Shown: positions 21,346 through 60,918 of the stretch, one piece after another | Layout: each line of letters starts with the position of its first letter | How positions within the stretch are numbered: the first letter of the stretch is position 1 | Assembly: GCA_025766275.1 (NCBI GenBank) | Contig: JAFKAC010000006.1 | Coordinates: 2,046,001 to 2,110,000 of the forward strand | Direction: 5' to 3' | Origin: Lactarius indigo | Lineage: Eukaryota > Basidiomycota > Agaricomycetes > Russulales > Russulaceae | Length of the DNA stretch: 64,000 nucleotides | Notes under the pieces: generated by a model | The model's database searches: none | What the model saw: only the letters and a program-made list of their open reading frames with translations | Told to the model about the DNA's origin: nothing | Position numbers and translations under genes: made by a program

Positions 21346-21357
21346 TCCCTCCATGAT
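21346..21357 (-). other. polypurine tract of the copia element
   Basis: On the minus strand a short purine run (GGAGGGA) directly abuts the 3' LTR, the expected plus-strand priming site for reverse transcription. Confidence 0.7.
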
Positions 21358-27093: not shown

Positions 27094-27112
27094 GGCGTCA
27101 GGGCCCATAACC
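27094..27112 (-). other. primer-binding site, initiator tRNA-Met half-molecule type
   Basis: Directly after the 5' LTR the minus strand reads GGTTATGGGCCCTGACGCC. Its complement resembles the D-arm/anticodon region of initiator tRNA-Met (...CAGGGCCCATAACC, anticodon CAT), not the tRNA 3' end. Drosophila copia uses the same half-tRNA priming. Confidence 0.8.
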
Positions 27113-38230: not shown

Positions 38231-38924
38231 AGTATACATGGTCAAGTAATGAAGGCTTTGAAACGGCCCAGCTGAACAGGTAGGCAACACTAAGGTGTGG
38301 GTGCCAATTGCTGAAGTGGCCCGTTGCAGAGAATTTTAGATATATATTTCAAGTCCCCAGTTGTATTAATACGATGAAACGCATTGACGCAAAAGAAACG
38401 GGATAAAGAACAATTTAAACCCTCCTTGTTTTGATCGTCGCAGAGTAGAGATGAATGTAGAGTGTTGCGTACGGTATTGTGAGAAGAGTTGTACGGGGCA
38501 CCAGAGCCTAGAAGAAGAAAAGGAAATGCGAACGAGACGAAGATAGAGGGTGGAAGAAGATTGCTGGGAGATTTCGTTCCACCATCTTAGACACGATTCA
38601 GCATCGGGGAAGAGCGTGAAAAAAGGAATCAAGATGCCGAGCAAGTCGTCACGATCGCAATTGAGTGCCACCGAATCAAGGGCCAACAGAACAATGTTTG
38701 CCTGGAATGAAGGGGTGGATTCCACGTGATGCAAGCAATGTTTCACGGCCCGGCAGTTCCCGGTAATGTTCCTGCTCTGGTTAAGTTGACGCATGCAGTC
38801 TACCTGACGTCTCAGATGCCTCCGCTGCTGATTCAGGTCAAGATTCAGGTTCTCTGCGGTTGCCCCGTGCCTCTGCAATATCGCCTAACTCACAGTCAGA
38901 GCCTGTCCTAATCCGTCGTATTCG

Positions 38925-39290
38925 TCGGTCGACGGTGGCCCGAAAGCGCTTGAAAAGTTCGTTGACCTCCAGATCGGCTGCGCGTAATTTCAGGCCCGTG
39001 TGGCACAGCCCGATCGTGTCTTCTCACGCACACTGGCACACGTGCACCATACGCACTCACTTGACAATTACCAAAAGCTGACTTTCTTGAACGACGTCTT
39101 GGCGTCCCGGGCCGGTCGTCCTCCTCGAACGGCATGCCGAATGAGACGCTTGATCGACAGTCCATTGTCAACTTGTCCCGCCCGAGGAGCACGCCGACGA
39201 CGCGGCGTTTCGATGCGACCCTGCATGCGTGGCAGACCGTCACGGAGAGTAAGACGAGAGGGTGTGCGACTAGCTAGATTTTTGGGGGCA
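38925..39290 (-). pseudogene. Rpn8/PSMD7 proteasome subunit relic, unit 1
   Basis: Minus-strand fragments resemble the MPN domain of the 26S proteasome lid subunit Rpn8: RRVVGVLLG, a MPFEEDD block, and in another frame a TGP-x-LRAADLEVNELFKRF-like stretch. Frames are broken and only the N-terminal half is present. The unit 2 copy (46.74-47.09 kb) preserves other residues of the same region. Confidence 0.55.
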
Positions 39291-39978
39291 GGCATATCGT
39301 AGCTCTAATCGTCGACACATTCGACGCAACGGTCAAGCCGCCTATCCGAACATGGGCGGGGTCAGTGTTGTCCACGCATATCGATCGTCGGTGGTTCGCG
39401 GCGAGGATAGAGATTATTACCATCTGGCCCAGCGTCCCTCCACCTCGCTCCTATGATCGGGTTCCGTGAGCTTTTCCGCCCCTTGGCGATAATTCACAAA
39501 AGCACGCAACCCGGAAATGAGCGCTACTGTAGTGAGCAGCCAACGACTCTGATCCCAGACAGAGTGACTCTTCTGCAGTCATTGCCTTCGTACCCTCGCA
39601 GGGCCCCGATGCGGCAGTGATCCGAGCAGTTAGGCGGTTATATCACGTGTCTTAGGTGTCTAGGGAACTCGCATTCAATTGTCACCATCATCCCGCTGTT
39701 CGAGACCAGGGCGGCCCGCACTTATTAAATCAGGAGACCGACCCCTTAATTACATAGGTTCTTCTTGCGGCAGTGGGTGGGGTTGCGTGAGGTACATGGC
39801 TGGGTCGGGCGTTGCTGGGATTGTCACCCTGAAATAGACAGACATTGGACACTTTCATGTTCTTTCCAAGAAATGTAATTCACAACGTTTACAATCGTGC
39901 AAAACAATGACCATACACAAAGAGTAACGCGACACCAGAGCACACTCAAGTCGCTTTCCGTTCCTCGTAGTCATTCCG

Positions 39979-40822
39979 TCAAAGAGTAACCGCAGGCTTG
40001 TCCAGAGCGTTGGAGAATCCAATGGCCTGTAAGAACGCGTCCGCCATACCAGCTGTGTACAAAGTTAGCAGAGAGGTTAACAGAATCGACGGCTTACTTA
40101 CTCGGTTGGAACGTGTATGAAGACGCTGCCGTGAGCGGCCAAGCCAACTCGAATTTCTCCGAGGGGGCCCCGTAGACTTCCAGAAGCAGCTGTAATAATT
40201 TTCGTTAGAAATTCCCTTTCCATACATCCTTCAAACTTACTATAAACTTGAACAGTTGGGACAGTCCCGGCGGTGTTTACAACTACGAATGACAGCTGGA
40301 CAATGCTGAATGACTGACGCAGATCAATTATATGTTATCCGAATAATGTCCTGACCACATACTTTCTATCACCGTAAGGGCTTGAATTCACGAGACGAGA
40401 ACCATAAACAGCGATCAGTTTTTCGTCGGCTGCAAGTAGTGTGATTCCAGGTGAACAAATAATTGGACACCAAAGAATAAGATATTACCGCCAACAGCAA
40501 ATGTCAGACTCGGGATTCCACCGTCACCACCGTGTTTCACGGTAACCGGAGTGATGACACCGCCGTTCTCCACATCATAAGTGATCCTAACGGAATCGAT
40601 AATAGTCGCCGGTGTAAACGACAACATTGGTGATTTTCCTGATAGCCTGGGTCTTAGGCCATTGACCGACGCCCGCTAGAATGCAGGGGTAAGCATTATA
40701 ACAATGGGGGCGAGGCCAGCGGCGGTGATGTTGGTAACGACGTACGGCTGGTCAAGTCGTCAATGAAGTTTCCTTGTGCGGAACCAGCGAGACGGATATT
40801 GGCTGCAACAGTAGTAAGACAT
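39979..40822 (-). CDS. jacalin-like lectin, copy A
   Basis: Predicted beta-prism (jacalin-related) mannose-type lectin, several exons. Exon 1 encodes a short MSY... N-terminus. Later exons give IRKITNVVVYTG, DIIDSVRITYDVENGG, VKHGGDGGIPSLTF (the GG loop), EKLIAVYGSRLVNS, LSFVVVNTAGTVP and a last exon GMADAFLQAIGFSNALDK before TGA at 39979. No signal peptide is seen, as in many cytosolic fungal defence lectins. Compared with copies C-E, one extra base follows the third codon (ATGTCTTACTACTG), which breaks the frame, so the copy is either inactive or miscalled. A TATA box lies ~61 bp upstream of the ATG. Confidence 0.65.
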
Positions 40823-40882
40823 GATGAGGAAGTTGAGAAGTAGGCAGTGAGTTGATAGGTAGATGGTGGTCAGATTTACCTG

Positions 40883-40890
40883 TTTATATA
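40883..40890 (-). promoter_or_regulatory. TATA box, lectin A
   Basis: TATATAAA on the minus strand, about 61-68 bp before the ATG at 40822, in a flank conserved among lectin copies. Confidence 0.6.
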
Positions 40891-42699
40891 TGTCTGGACT
40901 CGACGAAAGTAGGTCAAAAGCACCGTGACCGAGTTGGGGTCAGTTGATTCTACGGATCAGCATCAGTTGGACGTAAGTGGACAGGCGGTCTTTCACTCAC
41001 CGTCCCTTGTCTACTTGCTCACGAAATCGTACACGCCTTCATTTCTGTTGTCCGCATGTGCATGCTCCATCAAGTAACCGAAGACTGTCACTTTTCAGGG
41101 ACGCTCAGAGGACCATTAGATAAATTCTCTATAGTATCCGCCCATTGGTAGTAGCAGTAAGTCGACACCAGCTGAGCCATGAGATGAACGCTGAAAAGTT
41201 GTGATTCCGGTAGACTGGAATGTACCCTCGCGAATACAATGGCGTGGTTTGATTCTTGGAAAAGACATGTAAACAGGTCCAGAGGTGGTCCATTCCTATT
41301 TAATATACCATTCCTTGGTAATTTCCACCAACGAAGAAGAGCCGAGACGACAAATAGGACGATATGATCCCGAGAGAATGGTGGGGCTTTTAGAGGTAAC
41401 GTCACAAATTCCCTGATCGCTTCAGCACAGGTCCTGATAGACAGAAATGAAGACACTTTGGCACATGCATATATAGATAGAATGATTGGGGATAATGCAG
41501 TGTAGGTGGTACTATGCATGGACTCGGAGTCTTTCGAGGCGCGTTCAGTTGGAGTGCGAGACTGGTGCGAGTGGGATACGAGCGGCCCGGGTGTACCGGC
41601 GCGGCGATAGCTGAGCGCTGAGCGCTGAGCGATGGCAGACCCCGGTCTACTACAGGTTGCCGATATGTCTTGTGTTCTGCGCTTAGCATACAATTCCTCA
41701 TCTGCCATCATTAAGATTACTGTTGGCGCAATCGTCACCCAAGTCTAGTAAAAACCGGCTCTGTGCTTGGCCTAGAGATGGTCTTTTTGTGAAAATTTAT
41801 TAACTCGGAAGAAAAACGGAACACACATGGGCTGAGCGGTACTCTCTGATCGATCATGACATGATCATGTACGATTCCAGTCCGTGCTGTCTTCTCAAGA
41901 ATGCAGTGCTACCATAGCCAACTTGAAAATCTCCTCCACCTCTCTCTCGACCAAAGGAAACCTTACAGCTACACACCAATCAAGTCTCTCAGACCGATCC
42001 TTTCATTTGACAGGCCTTCCTAGAAGAGTTCGGTAGTATAAGCGACGCCCCTATCTCCCTACACAGCTATTACGAGTTTGCCAAGGAACCCTCAAATGCC
42101 ACTACAGTCCTTCCCCGCACAACTTCCACTCTCTTACGGCTTAAAATAGCCACGCGTTTGCAGAGACGCCTACATACAGTCATCGGTCGGCTGCCAATTG
42201 GCACTGGCACGTGGGATCTGGGTCTCCAGGTCTCCCAATTGTACAACGTGCAAGCTGATTACGAACGATTACTGACAAGGAACTCCGTTTCTTGTCGTGA
42301 CGATGACCGCCGCACTATCATCCACTTGACAGGTACTACAAGGGATGGCGTCGGTTCTCGCAGTCACGTCTTTGCTATGGCCCCAGGCCAAGGCCCGGAC
42401 AGATCGATTCAATCCGACACTTCACGGGACCCCATTGTCATCGTGCGTTTCAATAGTGTCAGAACTACCATCAGAATGGAAGGGAAGCACCGAATGCATC
42501 TGTTCGGCATAGTTTCAGTGGTTGTACGGAGCAGTTGTTGATAGTTCATTTAGATTCAAACCTAACGAGAGTAGTTCTCGGCTGAAGACTCTCAGCTAAG
42601 TCTTATCACATGGAAAAAATACCAAATAAATCATCTTCGCCGCTAGCTCCTACCCTATCTGGAAGGGTTCTGTTTCTGCCCTGCGAAATTGTGCGAGCC
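40891..42699. other. inverted upstream flank of lectin A
   Basis: No supported gene. The first kilobase is an inverted copy of the flank upstream of lectin B and a direct copy of that of lectin C. At 42.04-42.18 kb a plus-strand stretch with AKEPSNA and LPRTTSTLLRLK also occurs in unit 2 (49.87-49.95 kb) and may be a coding relic. Confidence 0.5.
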
Positions 42700-43790
42700 A
42701 TGTAGATTTCACAAGGTTTGGCCAGATCATGTCTGGGGTCATCTTGTTCATCTGCGAACCCAGGTAGCACGTTGAGCAGCGCCATACACGTCTCGCGGTC
42801 CGGACTTGTGAATAACTTCACTACAGATTCCAGGACGAGGGCTTTATACTTATCTGGCGGGACACAGACGAGCGGGACCATGAGCGGGACAATAGGTGGG
42901 TGGAGGTCGTTGTCGTCATGAGAGAGAGGGGAGTGATCAAGACAGGAAGTTGCAGGAAAGACGAGGCAAAATATTGGGGAGAATGTTGGGGTTGACTCCT
43001 TGAACATCGTCGTTCGCGTTATGTTTCTATGACATCAGGAAGATGTTGTACGCACCGAAGCAAAGGCCCTTTCTTCACCTATCGTCAAACCAAGGTTTCC
43101 CGATCCCACGCATATCTTAAACGGTCAACTTCCGCAAAAATAACCTCCGCTCGTACCGAGGCACCCGATCTTGCTGACATCGAGCATTGCCTTGGTGTCA
43201 TTCCATGCATAGGGTTTGGATAATTGAACACCTCGACGGCCACAGTGAGGGTAGTATTACTTCTCACGTAGAGGGCTGGTATGGAGGATTGAGGAATGAC
43301 GAGTGCAAGATGGCGGGTTGAGCCGGTTGAATGTCGGTAAAGATATGGCGCAGGTCTCGGCTGTTGTATTTGGCCACTGCAAAATATTTTCAGGCTGGAT
43401 ATTCAAGTACCCAATATGAGTATATGACACGATACAGAGCTTCGAGGGGGAAAGAAAGGGACGAAGCATGTTCGCACGAACAGGTTGTTGTGCTGTTCTG
43501 AGGGTCTTCTGAACCATTCGAACCCCCTAGCTTCATTCACTGGTTGTAGAGAGTTGATGCAGATGGCACCGCGAGAAGAATTTCACGAGGCGTTGATGCT
43601 CAGGGGAATGAGAGGATATGCGAGCCATGAGCGGAAGATGATCGAGGCCGGACATGCTCAGCTTAGAGAAACAACATACCATTATTCGCACGCACTGCTC
43701 GTGCGTGATACCCAGCCCGCCTGTCTTTCACAGGCGTAGAACCTTTGTGCGACCAACTTAGTATACTGTTCAGCTCGTCATAGAGTGGCA
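42700..43790 (-). pseudogene. SCY1 gene fragment, relic 2 (unit 1)
   Basis: Matches the functional SCY1 gene from about 59.09 to 60.29 kb, exons and introns alike: the HEAT stretch KALVLESVVKLFTSPDRETCMALLNVLPGFAD (partial, short form VVKLFTSPDRE), then kinase-domain exons and the CTGTCTTTCACAGGCGTAG region. The relic lacks both gene ends and has broken frames. Confidence 0.75.
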
Positions 43791-44765
43791 TGACGTTGGT
43801 TGAACCGGAGGTCAATCGTTGGCAGTGGTCGCAGACACCTCAGACCGAAATCGACGCGTAAATGTGAGAATACAACACCATATATGGATACCCTCCAATT
43901 ACGTATCCGAGACTCGTTCTTGAACCATTGACCAACCGAGCCCATGTGTGCGTTCCGTTTCTCTTCCGAGCTGACAAAAAAAACCACCTCTGGGCCAAGT
44001 TCTGGGCCTTTTTCTACTGGAATTGGGTGAATATTGCGCCAAGAACAGGAACGTCAACGATAGCGGATGAAGAATGTTCAATAGTCGTATGCACTAAGCG
44101 CGGATCACAACAAGACATTTCGGTAACCTGTTGACCCGTGATCTCACCCAGTAGGAGAAGAGAGTGAGAAGAGCTATCCTCTCTCCGGTACACTTGGGCC
44201 GCTCGTATCACCTCATTTTAATACTTGCAACTGAACTTGAACGCGCCTCGAAGACTCGTGCGTAGTACCATCTACGCTGTATCGGCCCGAGCATTCTCTT
44301 GATCTACGAACGTGACCTGGTACTTTCACGTCTATCAGGACCTGTGCTGAAACGATCAGGGGGCTTGTGGCGTTACCATTAAATGCCCACCATTCTCGGG
44401 GTCTCGTCGCCCCCAGTTTTGGCTCTGCTCTTTGTTTGTGGAAAATTACTGAGGAACGGTATATTTAATTGGAATAGACCCCCTCCTGGCCTGTTTACAC
44501 GTTTTTCCAAGAATAAAACCACGGCATTGTATTCCGCGGGGTCCATTCAGTCTACCGGAATCACAATACCAACTGTCAGCGCTGTCAGCGTTCATCTAAC
44601 GAGGCAGCTGGGGTCGACTGACCTGCTACAATTTCGTGAGCGACTAGACAAGACACATGAGAAAGATTGCCTGCCCACTTACGTCCTAACTGATGAAGGT
44701 CCATAGAATGAACCGACACCAACTTGGTCACGGTACTATTTGACAACTTTGGTCTCGTCCAGACA

Positions 44766-44772
44766 TATATAA
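44766..44772 (+). promoter_or_regulatory. TATA box, lectin B
   Basis: TATATAA 62-68 bp before the ATG at 44834, in the conserved sequence CCAGACATATATAAGGAGGT. Confidence 0.6.
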
Positions 44773-44833
44773 GGAGGTAAATATGAAGGTCATCTACTCA
44801 ACAACTCACTACCCAGTTCTCAGTTTCCTACTC

Positions 44834-45657
44834 ATGTATTCCGCTGTCGCAACTACTGTCGGTCCCTTTGGTTCCCCCCAAGGAGAAGCCCTTAACGACT
44901 TGACCAGCCGTACGTCGTTTCCAACGTTCGATCTCATCTCACTGTTAAAATACTTACCCTCTGCATTCTAGCGGGCGTCGGGAATTGGCCTTTTAGGAGA
45001 GATGCTATCAAGAAAATCACCAATGTTGTCGTTTACACTGGCGATATTATCGATTCCGTCAGGATCACTTATGATGTGGAGATCGACGGCGTCATCAATC
45101 CAGTTACCTGTGAAACACGGTGGTGACGGTGGAATCCCGAGTCTGACTTTGGCCATTGGGGGTAATACTTTTTTTGGATGTCCTGAATTTTTGTTCACCT
45201 GGAATCAAATTACTTACAGCCGACGAAAAACTGATCGCTGTTTATGGTTCTCGTCTCGTGAATCCAAGCCCTTACGGTGATAGGAAGTATGTGGTCAGGA
45301 TTTATCTGGATGACATATAACTAATCATGCGTTGGTCATTCAGCATTGTCCAGCTGTCATTCGTGGTTGTAAACACCGCCGGGACCGTCCCAACGATTCA
45401 AGTTCATAGTAAGTTTCAACTTGAAGGATGTGGGGATTGCCGGTTTATAACAAAATTGTTACAGCTGCTTCGGGAATCTACGGTGCCGGAGTCGGAGAAA
45501 TTCGAATTAGCCTGGCCGATCATAGCGGCCTCTTCATACACGTTCCGACCGGGTAAATAAGCCGTCAATTCTTCTAATATTTCTACTAACTTTGTATACA
45601 GAGGGTATGCCAGATGCCTTTTTGCAGAAAATAGGAATCTCCGACGCTTTGCAATGA
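44834..45657 (+). CDS. jacalin-like lectin, copy B
   Basis: Divergent partner of copy A. Its N-terminus, TVGPFGSPQGEALNDL, is closest of the five copies to the classical jacalin start (G-P-x-G-x-x-G-x-x-F/L-D). Further exons give IKKITNVVVYTGDI, HGGDGGIPSLTLAIGG, EKLIAVYGSRLVNPS, FSIVQLSFVVVNTAGTVP, EKFELAWPIIAASSYTFRP and GMPDAFLQKIGISDALQ with stop TGA at 45655-45657. One extra T before the GTGAAACACGG stretch (near 45112) shifts the frame relative to copies A and E. Role inferred: carbohydrate binding, possibly defence against grazers or microbes; no specificity can be read from the sequence. Confidence 0.65.
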
Positions 45658-46739
45658 GCTTTGACGGATTACTCTCAGGAACCGAATCGGACTGGAGTGT
45701 CACGCATGCTCTGTATCTGTGGTCATTGATTAGCACGAATGTAAACATTGTGAACTACACTTTGGAAGAACACGAAAGTGTCCAATGTCCGTCTAGATCC
45801 TGCGAGTCAGGTTTGTTCCAGGGATTAGTAGACTAGTGTGACAGTAGCGTCGTTGCTGACATTGGTACGTGCTTGAACCAACTCGCCAAGTTTTCCTGCT
45901 GGTCCGTTTGCACCACCTGGTCCACCACCTAGCCCGCCGTCTGTGACATGGTGACATGTAACCTCTGAATTCATCATTTAACCAGGACTCAAGCCACCAT
46001 ATGAAGGTGGGCAGCGTCGGCATTTCCCTGCAAAATTTCTCTTTGGTAATTCGCTGTGAGGACAGATAATACTCCTGTCCAACACTGGTACCTTTCCATC
46101 TCCGTATTTCGTGATTATACGGAGCCCAAGTAATAATTCACATAGAAAAACACCCGGCGATGAGCGCTAGAAAGCGGCCGGTGACTCGGATCCTGCACCA
46201 AATGCCAGAGACTGCCCCATGATTAATCAAGTCTCCGACACTTGTGAAATGGGGACAGGGTCACAGCGAGACTCCCCCGACTCTGAGGGATCCGGACAAG
46301 GTCATTCCACCGTCCTAGACACAATTCGGTATCAAGGAAGAACGTGAAGACAAGAATCGAGATGCCGAGTGAGTCATCACGATCTCAATCAAGGTCGACG
46401 GTCACCGGTCACTGGTCCGTAACACGGAGAAAAGGAAGAGGTGGTGGCCACGTGATGCAGGCAGCATGATTCCGAGTCCACGGTTCTAGCTTCATCCACT
46501 TCGGAAAGTTTCTGGCTTGGTTCTGGTCTTTCGTAGGTGGCTTTTTGAGTCTGGAGGTCAAACCGAAATCAATCTGCTCTGATGGTTTATGATACCCCTG
46601 AAGCCGCCCCGAATTCAGATTCTCTTTGGTTGCCCCGGTCTGCCTCTGCGCTATCACCTAACCCCGGGCCATGGTCACGCATCTGAGCCTGTCCGAATCC
46701 GGCGCATTCGTCAGTCGGCTGTGACCATCACCAGCCGAT
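45658..46739. other. junction between tandem units
   Basis: Unit 1 ends and unit 2 begins near 46.26-46.29 kb. The end sequence (CAAATGCCAGAGAC) matches 54.03 kb, and the following CCGTCCTAGACACAATTCGG matches 38.58 kb. No gene seen. Confidence 0.55.
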
Positions 46740-47093
46740 GATACATTTGAAGAGTTCGTCGATCTCCGAGGCTGCGCGTCGTTTCAGGCCCATGTATTAC
46801 AACTCGTCATGCCTTCCCGTGCTACATACATCACCATACGTGCACACATATCAATCTCTGAAGGCGCTGTTGACCCTATTGAAATTCTCAATGACTGTAA
46901 ACTACAGGTGTCCTGGTCGTCCTCCTCTAATGGCACCCCGATCGAGTTAGCGACGTTGACCGACTGTCCGTTGCCTTGCATGGGCACTGGCAGCACCGTG
47001 ACGCCGACGATGCGTTTCGGTGAGCCCCGGGCGACTCTCCGCACGTGGGGGTCCGCCACGAATAGTAAGACAAGAAGTTTCATGACTAGCTAG
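46740..47093 (-). pseudogene. Rpn8/PSMD7 proteasome subunit relic, unit 2
   Basis: Minus-strand frame opening MKLLVLLFVADPHVRRVARG, then SPKRIVGV, then VPLEEDDQD, aligns with the N-terminal MPN domain of Rpn8 (LVLLSVVDHxxRVARG, KRVVGVLLG, FAVPFDEDDKD as I recall the family). It stops well short of a full domain, and the metal-free MPN core is incomplete. Co-linear with 38.93-39.29 kb. Confidence 0.6.
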
Positions 47094-47782
47094 ATTTAGG
47101 GTGGTACATCATAGCTCTGATCGTCGACACATTCGACGAACGCCCAAGCTACCAGTGGCTATCCAAACTTGAACGCGAGCGGCATCAGCGTCTCCCCACG
47201 CACTGCCTATCGGTTTGCTGTGAGGACAGAAATCATTACCTGGCCCAGGTGTTTCTCCGCCCCATTCTATCGGGTTCCATGAGTTTTTCCACGCCCTGGC
47301 GATGATTCACACAGCCAGTAACTCAGAAACGAGAGCCTAATGAGCAGCCAACGGCCCAATTCCCAGTCGGAGTAACTGCGCTGCAGTCACTACCTTCGCG
47401 CGAGTACAGAAGGCCCCGATGCGGCAGATTTCCGAGCAGTTAGGCCTGTCATATCTCGTCCCGCATTCAAGTGTCACCATCATCCCTCCGTTCGGGACCA
47501 GGGCAGCTATGATCCCAAGTCTTTTGTACTTATTAAATGAGGAGACGGACCACTTTGATTACATAGGTTCTCCTTGCGGCCGTTGGTGGGGTACATAGTC
47601 GCGAATATACCTTCCAGTTGGGCCATGTTGGGATTGTTACCCCGAAATAGACAGCAATCGGAAGCTTTCGTGTTTTTTCCGAAATGTAATTCACAACGTT
47701 TACAACCGCATAAAACAATGACCATACAAAAAGAGCAAGCACGACATCAGCGGACAATCAAGTCCGATTCAGTTCCCGAGGG

Positions 47783-48638
47783 TTATTCCATCAAAGCACA
47801 AGCGGGGGCAGCCTTGTCCAAAGCGTTGGAGAATCCCAAGGCTTGCAAGAAGGCATCCGGCATACCACCTGTATACCAAGTCAGTAGAGATATTGGCAGG
47901 ATGGATGGGATGTTTACCTGGTTGGAACGTATACTGAAGAGGCTGCCGTGATAGGCCAAGCTAATTCAAATTTCTCCGACTCCGGCACCGTAGATTCCCG
48001 AAGCAGCTGTATCGATTTTAGTTATGAATCGGCGATTCATACATCCTTCAAACTTACTATAGACTTGAACCGCTTGGGACGGTCCCTGCGGTGTTTACAA
48101 CCACGAATGACAAGCTGGACAATGCTGAATGACCGACGCCGATTACTATATGTGACGTAATTAAATCTTGAGCACGTACTTCCTATCACCGTAAGGGCTT
48201 GAATTCACGAGACGAGAACCATAAACAGCGATCAGTTTTTCGTCGGCTGCAAGTAATGTAATTCCAGATGAACAAACATTCGACACCAAAAAATAAGATA
48301 TTACCGCCAACGGCAAACGTCAGACTCGGGATTCCACCAGTTGCCACCGTGTTGCACGGTAACCGGAGTGATGACACCGCCGTTCTCCACATCATAAGTG
48401 ATCCTGACGGAATCGATAATAGTCGCCAGGTGTAAACGACAACATTGGTGATTTTCCTGATGGCCTGGGTCTTAGGCCATTGACCGACACCCGCTAGAAT
48501 ACTGGGGTAAGTATTATAACAATGAGGCGAGGCCAGCGGCGGCGATGTTGGAAACGACGTACGGCTGGTCAAGTCGTCAATGAAGGTTCCTTGGGCGGAA
48601 CCAGCGAGACGGATATTGGCTGCAACAGTGTAAGACAT
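47783..48638 (-). CDS. jacalin-like lectin, copy C
   Basis: Starts MSYTVAANIRLAGSAQGTF followed by IDDLTSRTSFPT at the exon 1/intron border. The core exon encodes IRKITNVVVYT and YDVENGG, and later exons encode EKLIAVYGSRLVNSSPYGD and GMPDAFLQALGFSNALDKA with stop at 47783-47785. The glycine loop is disrupted: where A reads HGGDGGIP, C has GGTGGCAACTGG, a net one-base change. Another extra base lies near 48427. It is therefore probably inactive or carries sequence errors. A TATA box is conserved upstream. Confidence 0.6.
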
Positions 48639-48706
48639 GATGAGGAAGTTGAGAAGTAGGCAGTAGGCAGTGAGTTGATAGGTAGATGGTGGTCAGATTT
48701 ACCCTG

Positions 48707-48714
48707 TTTATATA
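48707..48714 (-). promoter_or_regulatory. TATA box, lectin C
   Basis: TATATAAA on the minus strand, 69-76 bp before the ATG at 48638. Confidence 0.6.
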
Positions 48715-50489
48715 TGTCTGGACTCGACGAAAGTGGTCAAAGAGCACCGTGACCGAGTTGGGGTCAGTTGAATTGTACAGATCACCATCAGTTAGGACGT
48801 AAGTGGACAGGCGGTCTTTCCCTCACCGTGCCCTGTCTAGTCACTCACAGACATTGTACACTTTGCCCCTTCATTTCCGCGTTCCGCACGTGCGTGCCCG
48901 AAGCATGCACGAGTCCTTCGAGTTCTACGAACGAGCATTGGAAGTAGCAGTGAGTCGACCCCGATCATCTCGTTAGATGAAGGCTGACAGTCAGCGTTGT
49001 GATTCCGGACGACTGAATGGACCCCGTGAGTACAATGCCGTAGTTTTGTTCTTGGAAAAAAGCGTGTAAAAGGTCCAGATGGGGTCCATTGCTATTGAAT
49101 ATACCATTTCTCGGTAATCTTTCCACAAAAAAAGAAGAGCAGAGACAAATAGGACGACGTGATCCCGAGAGAATGGTGGGCTTTTAGCGGTAACGTCACG
49201 AACTCCCTGATCATTCCAGCACAGGTCCTGATAGACAGAAATGAAGGCACTGGGGCACAAGCATAGATCAATAGAATGTTCGTGCTAATGCAGCGTAGGT
49301 GGTATTATGCATGGAGTCTTCAGGGCACATTCAGTTGCGAGTGGGGAAACGAAGTGAGAACCGTGACGAAGGGATATGAGCGGTCCGGGTGTACCGGAGC
49401 GAAGACGGATCATCGACCCCAGGTCTACAGGTTGCCGAAACTATCTTGTATTCTGCGCTTATACACTCTGCATACTATCGAAAATTCTTCATCTACCAGT
49501 CAAATTTGTTATTACTTGCTGGCGCAATCTTCACCCAAGTCTAGTAGAAAAGGGCCCAGAGCTTGGCCCAGAGGTCGTCAATTTGTGAACTCGGAAGAGA
49601 AACGGAACACACACACGGGCTTGGTTTTTCAAGCGGTACTTCTCTGCCGATCGAACGTCATGATAATGTACGATTTCAGCACTTGCTGAAGAATGTAGTA
49701 CTACTACCATAGCCAACTTGAAGGTCTCCTCTACCTCACTCGACCAAAGGAGACCTCCGGCAAAACACCAATCAAGTCTCTCAGACACGATCCTTTCTTC
49801 TACAGGCTTTCCTGGGGGGCTCAACAGTATCATAGCGAGACGCCCCTATCTCCCCACACTGCTATTACGAGTTGCCAAGGAGCCCTCAAATGCCCACTAC
49901 GTCCTCCCCCGCACAACTTCCACTCTCTTACGGCTTAAAATTAGTCACGCGTTCGCAGAGGCGCCTACATGCAGTCCTCACTCATCGGATCGGCTGCCAA
50001 TTGGCACTGGCACGTGGGGTCTGGGTCTCGCAATTGTACATCAGTGCAACCTGAATACGAACGTCCTGACAAGAAACCCCGTTTCTTGTCGTGACGATTA
50101 TTGCCGCACTATCGTCCACCTGACAGGTACTACAGAGGATGGCGCTGGTCATCGCAGTCATGTTGTTTTGCTATGACTCCAGGCCAAGGCTCGGACAGAT
50201 CAATTAATTCCGACTTTCACGGGATCACATTATCATCGTGCGTTTCAATAGTGTCAGAAATACCATCAGATTGTAGGGAAGCGCCGAATGCCTCTGTTCG
50301 GAATAGTTTCAGTGGTTGTACAGGGCATTGTTGATGACCTTTCTAGAATCAAACCGACAATAGTAGTTTCGGTCTAAAGACTCTCAGCAAGTCTGGATAC
50401 TAGAATACCAAAGTTCAATGAATCACCTTCGCCGCGAGCTCCTCCAGTATCCAGACGAATGCCGTTTCTGCTCTGTACAATTGTGCGAG
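48715..50489. other. inverted upstream flank of lectin C
   Basis: Counterpart of 40.89-42.70 kb, with the same unassigned AKEPSNA/LPRTTSTLLRLK stretch near 49.88-49.95 kb. No supported gene. Confidence 0.5.
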
Positions 50490-51440
50490 CCATGTAGATC
50501 TCACAAAGTTTGGCCAGATCTTGTCCGACATCATCTCGTTTATCTGCGAACCCGGATAGCACGTCGAGCAGCGCCATTCGTGCCCCGCGGTCCGGATTTG
50601 CGAATAACTTCACTACGGATTCCAGGAAGGTGGTCTTATACTCGTCTAGCAGAACACAAACGGAGCGGGACGATAGGTGGTTGTCGTCATGAGAGAGAGG
50701 GGAGTAATCAAGGCAGGAAAGGACGAGGCGAAATCATGATAAATGGGAAGGTACTGGGGTCGCGCCATTGAACATCGGTCAGTCCTTCGTGTTATGTTTC
50801 TACCAGCTTCAGGACGGATGTGGTATGCACCGAAGTAGAGACTCTTTCTTCACTCATCGTCAAACTAAAATTCCCCGATCTCGCGTCTATCTTAAACAGC
50901 TTAGTTCCGCAAAAATAACCTCCAGCTCGTACCAGGGTTCCCTGACATGGCGACATCGAGCAAAGTGCTTTTGGTGTCATTCGACGCGTCGGGTTTGGAT
51001 GATTGAGCACCTTCTTGACGGCCACGGTAAGGGGAGTATTACCCCTCGTGAAGGGCTTTGTATGTAGGGTTGAGGAGCGACGAGTGCAAAACGATGGGTT
51101 GAGCAGGTTGAATGCGCAGAGTATTTTCAGGCCGGATAGTCAAGTTCCCGGTATGAGTATATGGCACGATAGAGAGCTTTGAAGAAAAGGAAAGGGATGA
51201 AGTATGTGGGAAGAGGTTGTTGTTCTGAGGGTCTTCTGAGTCATTCAAACCCTCCTAGCTTCACTCACCGGTAGTACAGAGTTGATACGGATGGCACCGT
51301 GAGCAGAATTGCATGAGGCGTTAAGGCTCAGAAGAATGAAAGTGTATGCAAACGATAAGCGGAGGGTACCAGTTATGCGACGCACTTCTCGTAACGCCCT
51401 GCTTGCCTGTCTTTCGTAGGCGTAGTACCCTGTGCGATAG
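50490..51440 (-). pseudogene. SCY1 gene fragment, relic 3 (unit 2)
   Basis: Counterpart of relic 2, with the HEAT residues KLFANPDRGARMALLDVLSGFAD-like (short form NPDRGARMALLD) and kinase-exon remnants. Frames are broken. Confidence 0.75.
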
Positions 51441-52557
51441 ACTCACTATACTCTTCAGGTCGTCGTAGAGTGGGCATGAACTGGAGGTCGATTACTGGCA
51501 GAGGCTGCAGAGCAGAGGCACTGTGGTCACGGTCTCTAGGTGACGAAATCGAGTAAACGTGAGAATACAAGATCATATATGGATACGAGCCCAGTTACGT
51601 ATTCGAGTTACGTATTCGAGAGGCTCGTAACTGCTTGTGTGTGTTCCGTTTCTCTTCCGAGCTTGCTTCTGAGTCGACAAAATTTCACAAAAAGGCGTCC
51701 TCTGGGCCAAGCTCTGGGCCCATTCTCTACTAGACTTGGAAGATTGCGCCAGTAGTATTCACAATTTCCACAACTTCAATGATGGCAGATGAAGAATTTT
51801 CAATGGTTGTGTGCTAAGCGCAGAACAAGATTTCGAACAATCTCGGCGACACACTCGAAGCCATCCCCGCTCCGGTACACCCGGGCCGCTCGCATCCCTT
51901 CGTTTCCCCACTCCAAGTTGTGCATTAACCCGAGCATTTTCTACGCATGTACCTCAGTGCCTTCATTTTTGTCTATCAGGACCTGTGCTGAAATGATTAG
52001 GGAAATCTACGACAGTTACCGTTAAAAGTCCACCATTCTCTCGTGTCCACGTCATCCTATTTGTCTCTACTCTTCTTTGTTTGTGGAAAATTACGGAGGA
52101 ATGGTATATTCAATAAGCATGGACCCCTCTGGACCAGTCTACACGTTTTTTTTTTTCAAGAATCAAAGCACAGCATTGTATTCACGGGGTCCATTCAGTC
52201 ACCGGGATCACGACGCCGACTGTCAGCGTTCATCTAATGAGGCAGGCTGACAGCCGGGGTCGACTTACTGCCACTTTCCACTGGATGAAGACCGCGGGGA
52301 ATCCACCGAATTAGTTCTATGAAAGAGTTCCTGCAAGGTGACGGACGTCGGTTACTCGTTCAGAGAACTTGAAGGAGCACGCACTGTGCGGACGACGAAA
52401 GTGAAGGGGCGAGGATGCACAATGTCGTGAGCGACCAGACAAGGCACGGTGAGTGAAAGACCGCCTGTTTACTTACGTCCAACTGATGATAATCCATAGA
52501 ATCAACTGACCCTAACTCGGTCACGGTCCTTTTTACCACTTTCGTCGAGTCCAGACA

Positions 52558-52565
52558 TATATAAA
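52558..52565 (+). promoter_or_regulatory. TATA box, lectin D
   Basis: TATATAAA 62-69 bp before the ATG at 52627, in the conserved flank CCAGACATATATAAACAGGT. Confidence 0.6.
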
Positions 52566-52626
52566 CAGGTAAATTCTGACCGCCATCTATCTATCAACTC
52601 ACTACCCTGTTCCCAGTCATCTACTC

Positions 52627-53476
52627 ATGTCTTACACTGTTGCAGCCAACATCCGTCTCGCCTGGTTCCGCCCAAGGAACCTTCATTGACGACTTGACCA
52701 GCCGTACGTCGTTTCCAACAGTCACCGCCGCTGGCCTCGCCCCATTGTTATAATACTTACCCTGTATTCTAGCGGGCGTCGGTCAATGGCCTAAGACCCA
52801 GGCCATCAGGAAAATCACCAATGTTGTCGTTTACACTGGCGACATTATCGATTCCGTCAGGATCACTTATGATGTGGAGAACGGCGGTGTCATCACTCCG
52901 GTCACCGTGCAACACGGTGGTGCAACGGTGGAATCCCGAGTCTGACCGTTTGCCGTTGGCGGTAATATATTATTTTTTGGTGTCGAAATGTTTGTTCACC
53001 TGGAATCACATTACTTGCAGCCGACGAAAAACTGATCGCTGTTTATGGTTCTCGTCTCGTGAATTCAAGCCCTTACGGTGATAGGAAGTATGTGGTCAAG
53101 ACACATTTGGAATGACATATAATTAATCTGCGTCGGTCATTCAGCATTCGTCCAGCTGTCATTCGTAGTTGTAAACACCGCAGGGACTGTCCCAACTGTT
53201 CAAGTTTATAGTAAGTTTGAATGGATGTATGGATTTCGGATTTCTAACTAAAATGGTTACAGCCGCTTCTGGAGTCTACGGGGCCCCCTCGGAGAAATTC
53301 GAAGTTGGCTTGGCCGCTCACGGCAGCAGTCTTCATACACGTTCCAACCGAGTGAGTAAGCTGTCGATTCTGTTGACCTCTCTGCTAACTTTCGTACACA
53401 GCTGGTATGGCGGACGCTTTCTTACAGGCCTATTGGATTCTCCAACGCTTTGGACAAGCCTGCGGCTACTCTTTGA
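52627..53476 (+). CDS. jacalin-like lectin, copy D
   Basis: Plus-strand member of unit 2, same exon plan as B. Start MSYTVAAN; core exon IRKITNVVVYTGDIIDSVRI and YDVENGGVITPVT; then ADEKLIAVYGSRLVNSSPYG, and TGA at 53474-53476. Indels disrupt the frame: GGTGCAACGGTGG in place of GGTGACGGTGG in the glycine loop (near 52920), an altered base run after it, and an extra T in the final exon (GCCTATTGG, near 53430). With several defects this is the most damaged copy. Confidence 0.6.
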
Positions 53477-54596
53477 TGGAACTGACTGTGAGGAACGGAA
53501 AGCGACTTGAGTGTGCTCTGGTGTCGCGGATAACTCTTTGTGTATGGTCATTGTTTTGCACGGTTGTAAACGGATGTGAATTACATTTTTGGAAAGAACA
53601 TGAAAGTGTCCTAATGTCTGTCTAAATCCTGCCAGTCAGGCTTATTCTAGGAATTAGCAGGCGGTAGTGGCAGTAGCGTCGTTGCTGACATCAGTACATA
53701 CTTGACGCCAGCTCAGATCCAAGTTTTCCCAGTTGGTACCTCTGCGCCACCACCTAGCCCACCGTCTGCGGCGTGCTTAATTCTCTTTCCCTGGCTGAGC
53801 TCAGAATTAAACCAGCACCCAAACCGCCATCCCGAACACGGGCCGACGTCAGCAGTTTCCCCGCAAGTTTCTCTTTGGTGATTCGTCGCGAAGGACATAT
53901 ATTATCCTAGCTCAGCATCTGTTCGTCTTCATTCTACCATATTTCGTGATTTTAGCGAGCCCGAGTGATAATTCAGGCAGCAAGACAAGTGCGCGTTAGT
54001 GAGCAGCCAGTGACCCTAGATCCTGCGCCAAATGCCAGAGACCTACCCCACTGGTTACTCCGACGCTGCGTCATGACATTTTGTAGAAATTTATGGGGGC
54101 GGGCAGCCGAATAGGTGAGCAACGCGAGAGCGATGGAGGTCCGGAGTAGAGCGTATGCTCCTATCTCCTAGATATTATTCATAGATAACCGTTTAACTAC
54201 AGTATTATTACGATTATCTGATACCGCGGTCTAAGCCTCGGTTTGCCAGGACTGTGTCCGTTCCGGGCTGAATCCCAACAGAATGCCCCATTCTCACTTC
54301 ACCAAAGTCCTCATAGTACGATGTCAGGGGATCCCTGTTCCTGAGTCTTGACCCTGTGAGATAGGGATGGACAGACCCTCCTCAATTCTGCAAATTTTCC
54401 CTGCGACCGTGTGCAGGGTTGCATTTTCAATTTGGGAATAGATTCCTTACAGTTTTCCATGTTAGGATTGTCCCTCCGAATTAGACAGACATTTGACCCT
54501 TTCATTCTTTCAAAAAGTACAAAACGTAATTCCTAAAGTTTACATTCCCGCAAACAGTGACCATCCGCAAAGAGAAAGTACCACAGAATTCGAATT

Positions 54597-55419
54597 TTAC
54601 AACAGGGGTGGACCGGCCTGATCCAAAACCTTGGAGAATCCTATGGCCTGCAGATAACTAACAGGAGCGCCCTCTGTATACAATGTCAGCATATATATTG
54701 ATAGATTAGTGGGTTATTTACGCGGTTGGAAGGTATAAGAAGAGGCTGCCGTGAGAGGCCAAGATAGGTCAAACTTTTCAGTGGGGTCCTTGGACGTCCC
54801 CGAACCAGCTATAAAGAGTTTGATTATAAACCGACAATGTATATACCGTTAAAACTTACTATAAACTTTAGTCGTTGGGACGTTCCCGGAGGAATTCACG
54901 ACTACGAACGACAACTGGATAATACTGAATGATGAAGGTAGATTACTAGAGATGTGACGCAAATAAATCCTGGTCACATACTTTTTATCACCGTAAGAGC
55001 TTGGATTTACAAGTCGGGTACCATAAACGGCAACGAGTTTTTCGTTAGCTGTAATCAATGTGATTCATAGAGTGAACCAATATTTTGTACGAACAACATT
55101 ACCACCAATTTCGAAGTTAAGAGCCTCGGCTCCACCAGGACCGCCATGCTGTACGGTGATCGGGTTCGGAACGTTGTTAATCTGATAGGTAATCCTCAAG
55201 GAATCGACAATGCCCCCAGCGAAAACGACAATCCTGGTTATTCTGTTGATGGCTTGAGTTTTAGGCCATTGCCCGACACCCGCTTGAATACGGGGGGTCA
55301 GTAATATAACAGCGGGACGAGGTCGATGTTGGGAACGACATACGATTGGTCAGGTCATCAAGGAAATTTCCTTTGGCGGAACCAGCGAGACGGGAATTAG
55401 CTGCAATGCTGTAAGCCAT
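54597..55419 (-). CDS. jacalin-like lectin, copy E (best preserved)
   Basis: Start MAYSIAANSRLAGSAKGNF. Exons read without any frame break: AGVGQWPKTQAINRITRIVV, GGIVDSLRITYQINN, ITVQHGGPGGAEALNFEIGG, ANEKLVAVYGTRLVNPSSYG, FSIIQLSFVVVNSSGNVP, AGSGTSKDPTEKFDLSWPLT and a last exon YLQAIGFSKVLDQAGPPLL with TAA at 54597-54599. Five short introns. The beta-prism I pattern and the HGGPGG loop indicate a jacalin-related lectin of about 200 residues without signal peptide. It lies outside the tandem units and is the most diverged copy, so it may be the ancestral or sole functional gene. TATA box upstream at 55480. Confidence 0.75.
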
Positions 55420-55479
55420 GAGTTGTAAAGGGAGGACTCGGTACTGAGCTGAGCTGTGGATAACCGTCAAATTCACCTC

Positions 55480-55487
55480 TTTATATA
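55480..55487 (-). promoter_or_regulatory. TATA box, lectin E
   Basis: TATATAAA on the minus strand, 61-68 bp before the ATG at 55419. Same placement as in the other four copies. Confidence 0.6.
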
Positions 55488-55836
55488 TGCATGTGTGTGA
55501 CCAAAGTGGTGAAAGGTTTATTGATCGAGTATAGGTCGGTGTTAGCTGATTCGTGACATTGGTTGGGCGTAATCGAAGCTAGTCCTATGAACGTGTCTCC
55601 TGTCCGAACACATGATACCACTCCTTGCGTTACCTGTTCTCTATATGCCCCACCTGTTAGAAGGAACAGTAAGCCAACCTCGGCTGCATCATTAGATGGG
55701 CACTGAAGATTATGATTCTGGAAGAGTGTATGCCAGTGGGGTTGTGAATACCGTGGTTTTTTTATTGGGTAACGCGTAAATATTCGTATTATCTCTCGTA
55801 TTATCCCTAGTAGGAGTAGCACTCGAAGGCCCTCCA

Positions 55837-55945
55837 GGTGTGGCCAATGGTTAGGCGCTAGGCTTTGGATACTGTGGTGCGCCGCGGGAAGAGGTGGGTC
55901 CGAATCGAAGAGTTGCCCAGAGTGCTCGTGACCGTCAGGGGGGCC
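55837..55945 (-). repeat. inverted copy of the 56.65/56.80-kb repeat
   Basis: GGTTAGGCGCTAGGC, CGCCGCGGGAAGAGGTGGG and CAGAGTGCTCGTGACC on the plus strand are the reverse complement, with few changes, of the tandem pair at 56.65-56.91 kb. Confidence 0.65.
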
Positions 55946-57448: not shown

Positions 57449-60400
57449 CTACGCTTTCGCCCCAGCAATGTTCTTCTTCTGTTCTTTTAACTGTGCAATT
57501 CTCTGAAGAACCAAAGTGCTCCTCATGAGCCCGACAAATCTAGATAGAATGTAAAGAGTACAAGACGCACCTGCTTGCGCTCCTCTTTCCTGCGTGCCAT
57601 CTCTGCGGCCTTTTCTTCTTTCGTCATCCCAGCTTTACTCGGCACGGGAGAAGTGGGCAATGCCGCGCCATCGCTTGGCGCAGGGGATCCGAGAGGTGTT
57701 GATCGCGGACTCGGTGATGGCGAGAGCGCCGCGACGCGCGCGGGCCGTGCAGCCTGTACGGTCTGCGTCCGGGCCGGTGTGACCGTCGTCGCTATGGCAG
57801 GCGAAGTGAGTTCTGTAACTGGAATGGGCACAGGTGGCGGAGCGGGTTCCTCAAATGCCCCCCACGGGTCCTCGTCGTTCGCGGTGCCTCCCCAACCGCC
57901 ACCCGACTGTGCTGGCGTGCTTTCGAATGCGTCTGTGGCGGTGGTTGATTAGTTGCCATGTCAGAGTTTTTGAGACGGTGTGGTACGTGCTCCAGTCGTC
58001 TGCGTCCGCGTTGAGGTCCATCAGATCGCCACCCCAGCGCACCTCGTCTGCTAGTCCTCCTGGCAGAACACCTGGAGATACTGCTTTGTGAGCGCCGAGC
58101 TGCAGTCCCTTAGGTTTGCTCCCGCTTGGGATCGGCGGGGCCGATGCCTGACTACCGAACGTAGGTCTTGAGTCGCTTGGAACGGGAGGCGGTGGTGTTT
58201 GGGTCGACGATATCGCTGACTGCATGTCTGCGGGAGTAAACTGCACGGGGTCATAAGAAAGAGAGGGCATCGTATATGAGATGAGATAACCCACCTTCTT
58301 TCCAATCGAGGATATTGCCCAGCCCGCAAGAGCACCTGCTGCTCCGGCAGCGGAGCTGACCAGGGTGGCTTCGGCAGCCACCATTCGGTGTGCTGAGGCC
58401 GAGAGTAGGTCCGTCGCCTACGAGCGCAGTTTCGGGCTGAGACCCTCAGTTCAGGCTTATCAGGTATATAGAAGACCAACGAACCATCTTTCGCCGCGTG
58501 TTCCTCCAGTATCTGGACGAGCATTGCTACCGCTTTGAATGCCTGGTCCCGCACGATCCTATTCGCGAGTTGTCAGATAAAGTGGGTAGGGAAAAAAAGA
58601 CAGCTTACTTTTCCTTGTCCACCAAGGCCCCCGCAACGAGACCTACTACTTTTCCTGCCAGCTCCTCGACTTCGAATAGGTTCGCGCAGGCCATGCAGGT
58701 CATGAGTGCAGCGACCCTAGCTGGTGGGAAAGTATCCTTCAGTGCTTTGGCGCATGCCGCACCGAGTACCTTCCGTCGGGTATTTGGTCCCAATGTCGGC
58801 CCGAGGCGGCCGATAAGGATGATCGAATTGGTGCGGATCGGCGCTTCGAGGTCAGACTGAAGTCGCGCAAGGTGACGAAGCAGGTCGTTGTTCAAGATAC
58901 GCTCTGTGAACTGGAAAGGAGAGAAGATTGAGCCTAGGTCTGCGTAGAAACCAGCACCTGGTATACCTTGTCAGAAAGAAGGCCAATGACTTTGACCGTC
59001 GCTTCTCGAATGACTGGGATCGTGTCTGTGAATCCTGTTTGCTAAGTCCTATCTGTTAGCAGCACGAAGGTGTCGTTATTCAGATCTCACAAGGTTTGGC
59101 CAAATCTTATCTGACACCATCTGCTTGTCGAGTTTATCGGCGAACTCGGGTAGCGCGTCAAGCAGCGCCATACGCGTCCCACGATCCGGATTTGAGAATA
59201 GCTTCACTATGGGCTCCAGAACGAGGGTTTTATACTCATCTGGTAGAACATAGCTACCGAGCTGGACCACGAGCGGAACGATAGATGGGGCAGAGGTAGT
59301 CATAGTCGTGAGAGAGAGAGAATTGAGCAAGGCAGGAAGAATGAGGCGCGTCGAGAATGTAGGTGGAAGTGTCGGGGTCGCATCTTTGATCATCCTTCGC
59401 ATCGTATTTCTGTCAGCTTAGGCGTCTTGACTGGTGGCGGAGGGGCACGCACCGAAGTAGAGTGGCTCTTTCTCCATCTGTCATCAAACCAAAGTTCCCC
59501 AACCCTTCGCATATCTTAAACAGTCTGTTTCCGCCAAAAAAACCTCCGCTCTCCCCAAGGCTTTCTGCCATGCCGACATCGAGCAATGCTTTTGGTGTCA
59601 TTCGACCCTTCGGGTTTGGATTGAGCATCTTCTTGAACGACTGGCCATAGCGAGGGTGGGATTGCCCCTCGCGCGGAGGGCTGAGGAGGGCTGTACGGTG
59701 GGTCTAAGAATGACGGATGCGAGACGCCTGGGTTGAAAAGATTGAATATGAGCAATGCTAAGGCATAGGCGTCAACTGCCGCAATTGGTCCGCTACAGAA
59801 TATGATTGGACCACTCCCAAACGAAGGTAAAAGGGAACGCTCACTCTTTTAATGCAGCCCACCCGCCCTTCTCGTTTTCGGGCATTCGATGGATATTCAA
59901 ATCCCCGGCGTAGGTCTAGCATTCTTGATATGATGCAGCGCGATAAGGCGGGGTATAAGAGATGAACTACGCACAACGAGGACGGCATTCTGTTCTGCTG
60001 GGTCGCTGAATAGTTCAAACCCTCCTAATTTCCATTCACCGGTGGAAGATATAAATATCGAGCTGATGCGAACAGTACCGTGAGCAGCGTTGCACGAGGT
60101 GTGGATGAAGGAAAGGGCGATCTAGATTGTAGGCATGAGATACGAGAAGAGCAGCGGGAAATGAAAGCGTGAATCCAACTGCGCGAATTTTCACCCCGTG
60201 CTGAAGGACAACGTACTGTTATGCGATGCAACCCCCATAATATCCAGTCCTGCTTATCTTTCATGGACGTAGCCTCCAATGACGACAGTTCTGCAGAGAG
60301 TAGCTTGACACGTTCCGTCATGATGTAGATCGTTCCATCCGCCTCGACAGCGTCCATAAATTTGAGAATATCGGGATGTCGCGTAACGCGCAACCTTCGG

Positions 60401-60676
60401 AGCGCATTCTGGGCGACAGGGAGCAAATTGCGCCATTTCTGGCTGTTAAACTCGAAAACGGACACGGGGGTTCCATCATCCTACCGTATTCAGCTTATCA
60501 GACGAAGGATGTCAAACAAAAAGATCTTTACCCGCTTTGTTGCGTCGTACAACGTCCAGATGCTGAGAGTGTCGAGAGGCGGAAGCTTTTTTCCAAGCGA
60601 AAAAGGTAGATTGAGACCAGACTTTTGTACTATAGAAGACACAGCGGCACTGCCGAGTGTTCCTGAGATAATCCAT
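57449..60676 (-). CDS. SCY1: SCY1-family pseudokinase with HEAT repeats
   Basis: Orthologue of Scy1/SCYL1-type proteins, which pair an inactive kinase domain with HEAT repeats and act in COPI trafficking and tRNA export (family knowledge). Start at 60676 (MDYLR). The next conserved stretch TLGSAAVSSIVQKSGLNLPF is one base out of frame (extra A near 60659-60663). Then SIWTLYDATKR, GTPVSVFEFNSQKW, RVTRHPDILKFMDAVE and YIMTERVKLL (kinase N-lobe). HEAT region: EYKTLVLEPIVKLFSNPDRG, TGFTDTIPVIREATVKVIGL, NNDLLRHLARLQSDLEAPIR and PARVAALMTCMACANLFEVE. A Ser/Pro-rich tail ends in the basic coil MTKEEKAAEMARRKEERKQ and RIAQLKEQKKNIAGAKA, stop 57449-57451. Many 50-60 bp introns. It is the source of the three relics in the lectin region. 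Divergent from MED14. Confidence 0.85.
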
Positions 60677-60918
60677 AATGAGGTGTTGCCAACAAGAGCG
60701 TAATACCCACGTGGACGTCCCGCTCGCGCATCCGGAACACGCTCCGGCCTTTGGCCACACCCCCTTCTCTATTCCCGCCCTCGTCTGCAGCACCGTCTGT
60801 TGCGAGTTCCGTCTTTCATTTAGGTTCTCTTCGTGCAACCTCATGCCATACCTGTGACCGACTAGACACCTGTCAACGACTCGGATCCCCGGCTCTCCCA
60901 TACCTCCCCTGTTCCTAA
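60677..60918. promoter_or_regulatory. shared divergent promoter region SCY1/MED14
   Basis: About 242 bp between the two start codons, pyrimidine-rich on the plus strand before the MED14 ATG (CCTCCCCTGTTCCTAAAATG). No TATA box seen. A bidirectional promoter is inferred from the spacing. Confidence 0.45.

What the first reader, a model, noticed from the sequence alone, without database searches (positions are those of the whole stretch)
38450..55490. Lectin locus amplified by inverted then tandem duplication
Five jacalin-like lectin copies alternate in orientation (-,+,-,+,-). Copies A/B and C/D form divergent pairs whose upstream flanks (more than 1 kb) are inverted copies. The two pairs sit in abutting ~7.8-kb direct repeats. 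All five keep a TATA box 61-76 bp before the ATG even where the coding frame is damaged. Jacalin-related lectins are known carbohydrate binders and some fungal lectins act in defence; clustering with preserved promoters suggests a dosage- or diversity-selected locus.
Basis: partly seen in the sequence, partly recalled or inferred. Interest (0 to 1): 0.75.

Follow-up and report, generated by a model that had tools for sequence, protein, structure and literature searches.

The report
Milk-cap lectin cluster beside SCYL1
In a blue milk-cap mushroom, a jacalin-like lectin gene next to the housekeeping gene SCYL1 was copied several times by ordinary segmental duplication; four of the five copies in this window have broken reading frames in the assembly, although three of them show that their protein sequence mattered until recently.

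Summary
In detail: five lectin copies on alternating strands, two 7.8-kb direct repeats (38,843-46,228; 46,613-54,060) carrying A/B and C/D, inverted upstream flanks, and TATATAA 68-76 bp before each ATG. The source is Lactarius indigo. Copy E encodes an intact 183-aa protein with a jacalin-like fold.

The history is not a plain "invert, then tandem": within the lectins that tree is rejected by the AU test in both halves (p 0.002 and 3e-61; SH rejects only the second), and C changes its closest relatives midway. A, C and D show purifying selection (dN/dS 0.11-0.20), not diversification; B looks relaxed. Yet A-D carry 3-8 exon frameshifts each, mostly single-base insertions, too many for so few amino-acid changes. 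Some are shared between copies, hence real; the private ones may be consensus errors or a local mutation burst, and controls do not settle it. Dosage selection is possible in the past, unshown now. An ordinary gene-family story with one unexplained detail.

The parts
38843..46228 (.). repeat unit 1 (copies A and B, SCYL1 fragment X1)
   Evidence: self-BLAST
46613..54060 (.). repeat unit 2 (copies C and D, SCYL1 fragment X2), direct repeat of unit 1
   Evidence: self-BLAST
39835..40822 (-). lectin copy A, frame-broken, splice dinucleotides kept, no stop at an internal aligned codon
44834..45795 (+). lectin copy B, frame-broken, relaxed constraint (branch 36 nonsynonymous : 14 synonymous), early stop at aligned codon 177
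47648..48638 (-). lectin copy C, frame-broken; 5' half close to A and D, 3' half diverged from them (with B in the best of four trees, a clade A,C,D not rejected there)
52627..53624 (+). lectin copy D, frame-broken; 14 private single-base insertions over its region
54597..55419 (-). lectin copy E, intact, 183 aa; exons 55419-55344, 55282-55103, 55048-54982, 54924-54860, 54808-54722, 54673-54597
   Evidence: NCBI model P0001
40884..40890 (-). TATA box of A
44766..44772 (+). TATA box of B
48708..48714 (-). TATA box of C
52558..52564 (+). TATA box of D
55481..55487 (-). TATA box of E
42704..43387 (-). X1, decayed fragment matching the HEAT-repeat part of the SCYL1 gene (69%)
50496..51018 (-). X2, decayed fragment matching the HEAT-repeat part of the SCYL1 gene (70%)
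57450..60700 (-). SCYL1-type pseudokinase gene, apparently complete (limits read by eye; no full gene model built)

Best explanation
A jacalin-fold lectin gene (E) sits beside the housekeeping gene SCYL1 in Lactarius. A segment holding the lectin and the 3' half of SCYL1 was duplicated, dispersed once (G/H) and built up locally into two 7.8-kb units with oppositely oriented lectins. The copies then exchanged sequence by gene conversion or recombination. A, C and D were kept as working proteins for most of their history, consistent with a multi-copy lectin cluster such as the one suggested in L. vividus. In this assembly only E in the window, and F, G and H outside it, have whole frames. Shown: repeats, founder unit, fold, past constraint, mosaic identity. 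Inferred: gene conversion as the mechanism, and the role. The most likely role is a cytosolic glycan-binding protein of hyphae or fruiting body, in defence or in surface recognition.
Against: The Pfam score is barely over its cut-off; residues 1-35 and 175-183 of the model have low confidence, and Foldseek TM-scores are only about 0.45-0.55 by query length, with Cry-toxin domains further down the same list. The sugar-ligand Asp of jacalins corresponds to Gln in 27 of 29 family rows, so binding is not assured. Constraint and frame damage contradict each other unless the damage is very recent or partly artefactual. By the SH test one tree (A,C,D clade with A+D sisters) is not rejected in either half (0.24 and 0.38), though AU rejects it in the 5' half (0.007), so the tree evidence for exchange is moderate. 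F does not fit a simple scheme: its upstream side is like A/C, its 3' flank like B/D. Linkage rests on equal contig lengths, not coordinates; L. quietus (17-kb contig) does not show it; L. sanguifluus, L. akahatsu and L. tabidus have lectins but no SCYL1 among the rows listed.
Confidence: 0.75

Rival explanations
1. Most private frameshifts in A-D are consensus errors of the assembly. A, C and D are working genes kept similar by conversion, that is, a dosage array.
For: D branch 4 synonymous: 0 nonsynonymous changes and C-D exons 1-3 6 S: 0 N, yet 7 (D) and 5 (C) private exon insertions; no internal stop at aligned codons in A, C, D. The assembly does hold error-rich sequence: C110 against C24 has 25 one-base losses, 3 longer losses, 1 gain and only 5 substitutions in 5.0 kb.
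Against: That demonstrated error class is losses (25 missing: 1 extra), the opposite of D (1: 14; Fisher p 6e-9). Its lost bases mostly copy a neighbour (19 of 25), whereas 9 of 25 inserted bases in A-D do (my tally), as in the G-H control (3 of 8). Thirty near-identical LTR copies show no one-base insertion. Extra exon bases are shared by A+C, C+D and B+C (one each) and so look inherited. The insertion excess is absent in the upstream arms.
Confidence: 0.4
2. The frames broke for real and very recently, in a local burst of single-base insertions, for instance during error-prone repair synthesis; conversion spread some of them.
For: Shared insertions exist. Excess confined to the lectin bodies, where copies exchange sequence, and D's 3' flank (4 inserted: 0 deleted bases). 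One-base insertions to deletions 25: 7 in A-D bodies (events) against 10: 21 in the A-D upstream arms (bases), p 4e-4.
Against: No known process of this signature was found here. D needs 14 insertions in the time of at most 30 substitutions (G-H control 8 one-base indels: 189 substitutions, p 2e-7).
Confidence: 0.3
3. A-D are old pseudogenes decaying neutrally.
For: Frames broken in all four; B branch 36 N: 14 S and an early stop in B.
Against: dN/dS 0.11-0.20 among A, C and D with Fisher p 9e-6, 1e-8 and 4e-6; splice dinucleotides kept; no internal stop at aligned codons in A, C, D.
Confidence: 0.1
4. This family encodes the purified 18-19 kDa Gal-beta-1,3-GalNAc lectins of Lactarius (LDL, LDetL), proposed to act in host-root recognition.
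For: Predicted masses 19.3-20.0 kDa for E and five relatives fit the 18+19 kDa subunits of LDL (PMC5535827, passages); jacalin itself binds that sugar (recalled).
Against: The genome also has the FB_lectin family PF07367, 13 matches, which is a usual mushroom T-antigen lectin (recalled). The canonical ligand Asp is missing here. No N-terminal sequence of LDL was found.
Confidence: 0.12

Closest known systems
Jacalin-related lectins (PF01419), e.g. banana lectin, horcolin, OsJAC1 domain; in fungi Grifola frondosa GFL (Nagata 2005, known here only from citations in PMC8227253 and PMC4425051)
   Same: Pfam match over the cut-off, all-beta model of jacalin fold, single domain
   Different: about 15-26% identity to the best-ranked jacalin lectins; ligand Asp of the GxxxD loop is Gln in nearly all members; six exons; named members almost only in Lactarius
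Segmentally duplicated gene families with gene conversion
   Same: mosaic identity, similar gene bodies in diverged flanks
   Different: excess of single-base insertions in the exchanged parts
FB_lectin family (PF07367), also clustered in this genome
   Same: mushroom lectin, multi-copy
   Different: different Pfam family; 9 of 13 matches span 130 or more of the 140 model positions, 6 of these without an internal stop, so largely uninterrupted by introns

Membership tests
Jacalin-like lectin domain PF01419 | profile score over curated cut-off | tested here: met
   22.5 bits against 22, E 1.7e-4, scanned with the first 187-aa model of E; precomputed PF01419 in many relatives
Jacalin-like lectin domain PF01419 | beta-prism I fold | tested here: met
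Sugar-binding jacalin lectins with canonical GxxxD site | Gly and Asp of the GxxxD loop (motif recalled) | tested here: not met
   position 167 is Gln in 27 of 29 rows, position 163 is Gly in 1 of 29; register to horcolin D138 rests on a weak alignment
Sugar-binding jacalin lectins with canonical GxxxD site | carbohydrate binding | not testable with these tools
   needs protein and a glycan assay
Gene-converted duplicate family | different parts of the same copies support different trees | tested here: met
   of four trees compared, the best of the 5' half is rejected in the 3' half (AU 1e-38, SH 1e-4) and the best of the 3' half in the 5' half (AU 2.7e-6, SH 0); one compromise tree passes SH in both halves but fails AU in the 5' half
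Dosage-selected array | several intact, expressed copies | tested here: inconclusive
   in the assembly 1 of 5 copies in the window and 4 of 8 in the genome have no frameshift; whether the private frameshifts are real is open, and expression is not testable

The most novel reading that the evidence does not exclude
Lectin bodies that exchange sequence between inverted copies in this locus suffer a genuine local process that inserts single bases, mostly not copies of a neighbouring base. It broke A, C and D within a time that allowed almost no amino-acid change. That would be an insertion-biased mutation signature linked to ectopic gene conversion.
Probability: 0.2. Interest if true: 0.55.

Novelty: new member of a known kind. 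Interest (0 to 1): 0.33.

Why it matters
It gives a lectin family, seemingly almost confined to Lactarius, a genomic address beside SCYL1 and an intact founder gene that can be expressed and tested. Lectins were the first molecules credited with host specificity in milk caps (PMC8417538, passage), and a 2021 survey says their part in the symbiosis is not yet confirmed by gene disruption (PMC8227253, passage). The insertion pattern, if real, would be a mutational signature worth naming.

Tried and rejected
A first E model of 187 aa used another donor for intron 2; relatives corrected it to 183 aa; searches used the 187-aa version. The idea that this family is LDL was weakened by the FB_lectin search. 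A repeat-induced transition signature is not evident: A-D 29 transitions: 20 transversions, A-B 80: 65; context was not tested. The view that the insertions differ from normal mutation because most do not copy a neighbour was dropped: the G-H control has the same proportion (Fisher p 1.0). The notion that they are this assembly's usual errors was weakened by the opposite direction in C110 and by the LTR control, but not excluded. Giollant 1993 (PMC160599) is not held, so no peptide data of LDetL were seen. Seven literature searches list no title or abstract start on a jacalin cluster in Lactarius; of the five papers I opened passages of two; this is absence from an open-licence library only.
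Full report
Source. The window lies on contig C248 (2,414,834 bases) of a 90-Mb genome. I take the genome to be L. indigo, a milk cap.

Observation. Self-BLAST confirms two direct repeat units of period 7.77-7.83 kb at 74-76% identity and the inverted matches between lectins and their upstream flanks. The five lectins alternate in strand. TATATAA starts 68-76 bp before the ATG in all five. A 16-base run around the TATA is invariant in A-D, and 9 bases in all eight genome copies, more than intron columns would give (rough chance 6e-5). So the box was constrained over the life of the family, but this does not date the constraint to after the frames broke.

Relatives. One-sequence search gave 54 proteins among 209 candidates, profile search 83 among the 7991 candidates that were scored. 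Named hits of 40% identity or more are all Lactarius, apart from one Gymnopilus dilepis protein (P0056, 47%); a number of unnamed metagenome hits are of unknown organism; named bacterial hits are distant (26-32%). Russula, Lactifluus and Multifurca appear in the SCYL1 list but not among the lectin hits. In the protein tree E groups with L. vividus, L. psammicola, L. pseudohatsudake and L. sanguifluus proteins and two metagenome rows (support 89/96, below the strict mark), while F falls in a clade with proteins of seven other species (96/96). A-D were not in that tree; the DNA tree places them next to F. In L. vividus the E-type and two F-type proteins (no difference over the tree's columns, lengths 182 and 174) share one 552-kb contig length and close locus numbers, so a cluster probably predates L. 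indigo.

Founder unit. The gene at about 57.45-60.7 kb (-) is a SCYL1-type pseudokinase: relatives are named armadillo-type protein, SCY1-like protein 1, N-terminal kinase-like protein. A piece of its kinase part has one match in the genome. Its HEAT part recurs, decayed, at 42.7-43.4 kb and 50.5-51.0 kb and beside F, G and H; the G locus also carries the C-terminal part in the same order behind its lectin. The duplicated segment was thus lectin plus SCYL1 3' half, and E stands at the founder position. Other lectins of some of these species lie on other contigs.

History inside the array. Outside the inverted arms only A-C (58-89%) and B-D (up to 84%, fading past the 3' side) match, as a tandem duplication of an A/B pair predicts; inside the arms upstream of the promoter (windows 1400-2000) A, B, C and D are about equally alike in all pairs (69-84%). 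F is mixed: upstream side like A/C, 3' flank like B/D. In the lectin bodies A, C and D are 94-97% alike in two windows of the 5' half, A-D stay at 92-93% over the next three windows, while A-C falls to 84, 74 and 81% and C-D to 88, 74 and 79% (by exon). Of four trees compared, A~C, B~D has AU p 0.0024 in the 5' half (SH 0.15) and 3e-61 in the 3' half (SH 0). The best tree of each half is rejected in the other; a compromise tree (A+D, then C) passes SH in both but fails AU in the 5' half (0.007). Exchange between copies, including oppositely oriented ones, is the simplest reading.

Selection. Among aligned codons A-D differ by 14 synonymous and 5 nonsynonymous changes (dN/dS 0.11), A-C 0.16, C-D 0.20; Fisher p 9e-6, 1e-8 and 4e-6. 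A, C and D against B give 0.43-0.54, and the B branch has 14 S: 36 N; intact pairs E-F, E-G, F-G give 0.30-0.37. Intron ends at E's columns are GT..AG in 40 of 40 cases over eight copies. The only stop at an aligned codon in A, C, D, F, G and H is at the last codon; B has one more at codon 177. Exons of A-C, A-D and C-D are 91-96% identical, introns 80-90%. This is purifying, not diversifying, selection. Low dN/dS could partly be inherited from working donors by conversion.

The contradiction. Exon indels not divisible by three number 3, 3, 8 and 7 in A-D and 0 in E, F, G, H. D has 14 private one-base insertions to 1 deletion over its lectin region (15 in the wider span), against 15-30 substitutions. 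Controls: G against H 8 one-base indels to 189 substitutions in 7.3 kb; 30 LTR copies, of 40 scored and 249 candidates, 0 insertions, 1 deletion, 25 substitutions. The excess is confined to lectin bodies and D's 3' flank; in the A-D upstream arms deleted bases outnumber inserted ones 21 to 10. Extra exon bases are shared by A+C, C+D and B+C (the C+D one lies in an ambiguous stretch), so those look inherited. Base context does not discriminate: 9 of 25 private insertions copy a neighbour, 3 of 8 in G-H. The assembly does contain error-rich sequence: contig C110 repeats part of C24 with 25 one-base losses, 1 gain and 5 substitutions over 5.0 kb. But the direction is opposite to D's (p 6e-9). I therefore leave the private insertions open between consensus error (0.4) and a recent real burst (0.3).

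Function. The best guess is a soluble glycan-binding protein acting in defence or surface recognition, by analogy with other mushroom lectins. PMC8417538 reports lectin genes among those induced during L. deliciosus-pine mycorrhiza (passages), without the word jacalin. The classic lectin LDL has 18- and 19-kDa subunits and binds Gal-beta-1,3-GalNAc (PMC5535827, passages; PMC6272671, passages). The masses fit, but the genome also encodes FB_lectins, so I do not equate them.

Verdict. The finding is real and correctly described, but its explanation is ordinary: segmental duplication of a lectin-SCYL1 segment, sequence exchange and partial decay. The added points are the SCYL1 founder unit with its linkage in the genus, the failure of the simple history, purifying rather than diversifying selection, and the unexplained insertion excess.

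Noticed in passing
20804-27654: Very young LTR retrotransposon: identical 542-bp LTRs and one uninterrupted 1470-aa reading frame (-); 40 LTR matches scored of 249 candidates in the genome. It sits between two plus-strand frames, the right one with a tnp2 transposase domain (PF02992), which suggests a nested insertion.
   Followed up: partly
outside window: G000 contigs C24, C282, C110, C224: FB_lectin (PF07367) cluster; C24 and C282 show nearly the same spacing (2817/13921 and 2809/13931 bases) and look like two haplotypes, while C110 is an error-rich near-duplicate with mostly one-base losses.
   Followed up: yes
54925-54981 (intron 3 of copy E): The NCBI model of copy E (P0001, 202 aa) keeps a 57-bp in-frame stretch that relatives splice out.
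   Followed up: yes
P0056 (Gymnopilus dilepis, 12-kb contig): The only named non-Lactarius protein of 40% identity or more to the family; horizontal transfer, contamination or patchy loss not distinguished.
   Followed up: no
55816-56912: Three related stretches of about 105-130 bp, two in direct and one in inverted orientation, upstream of copy E.
   Followed up: no
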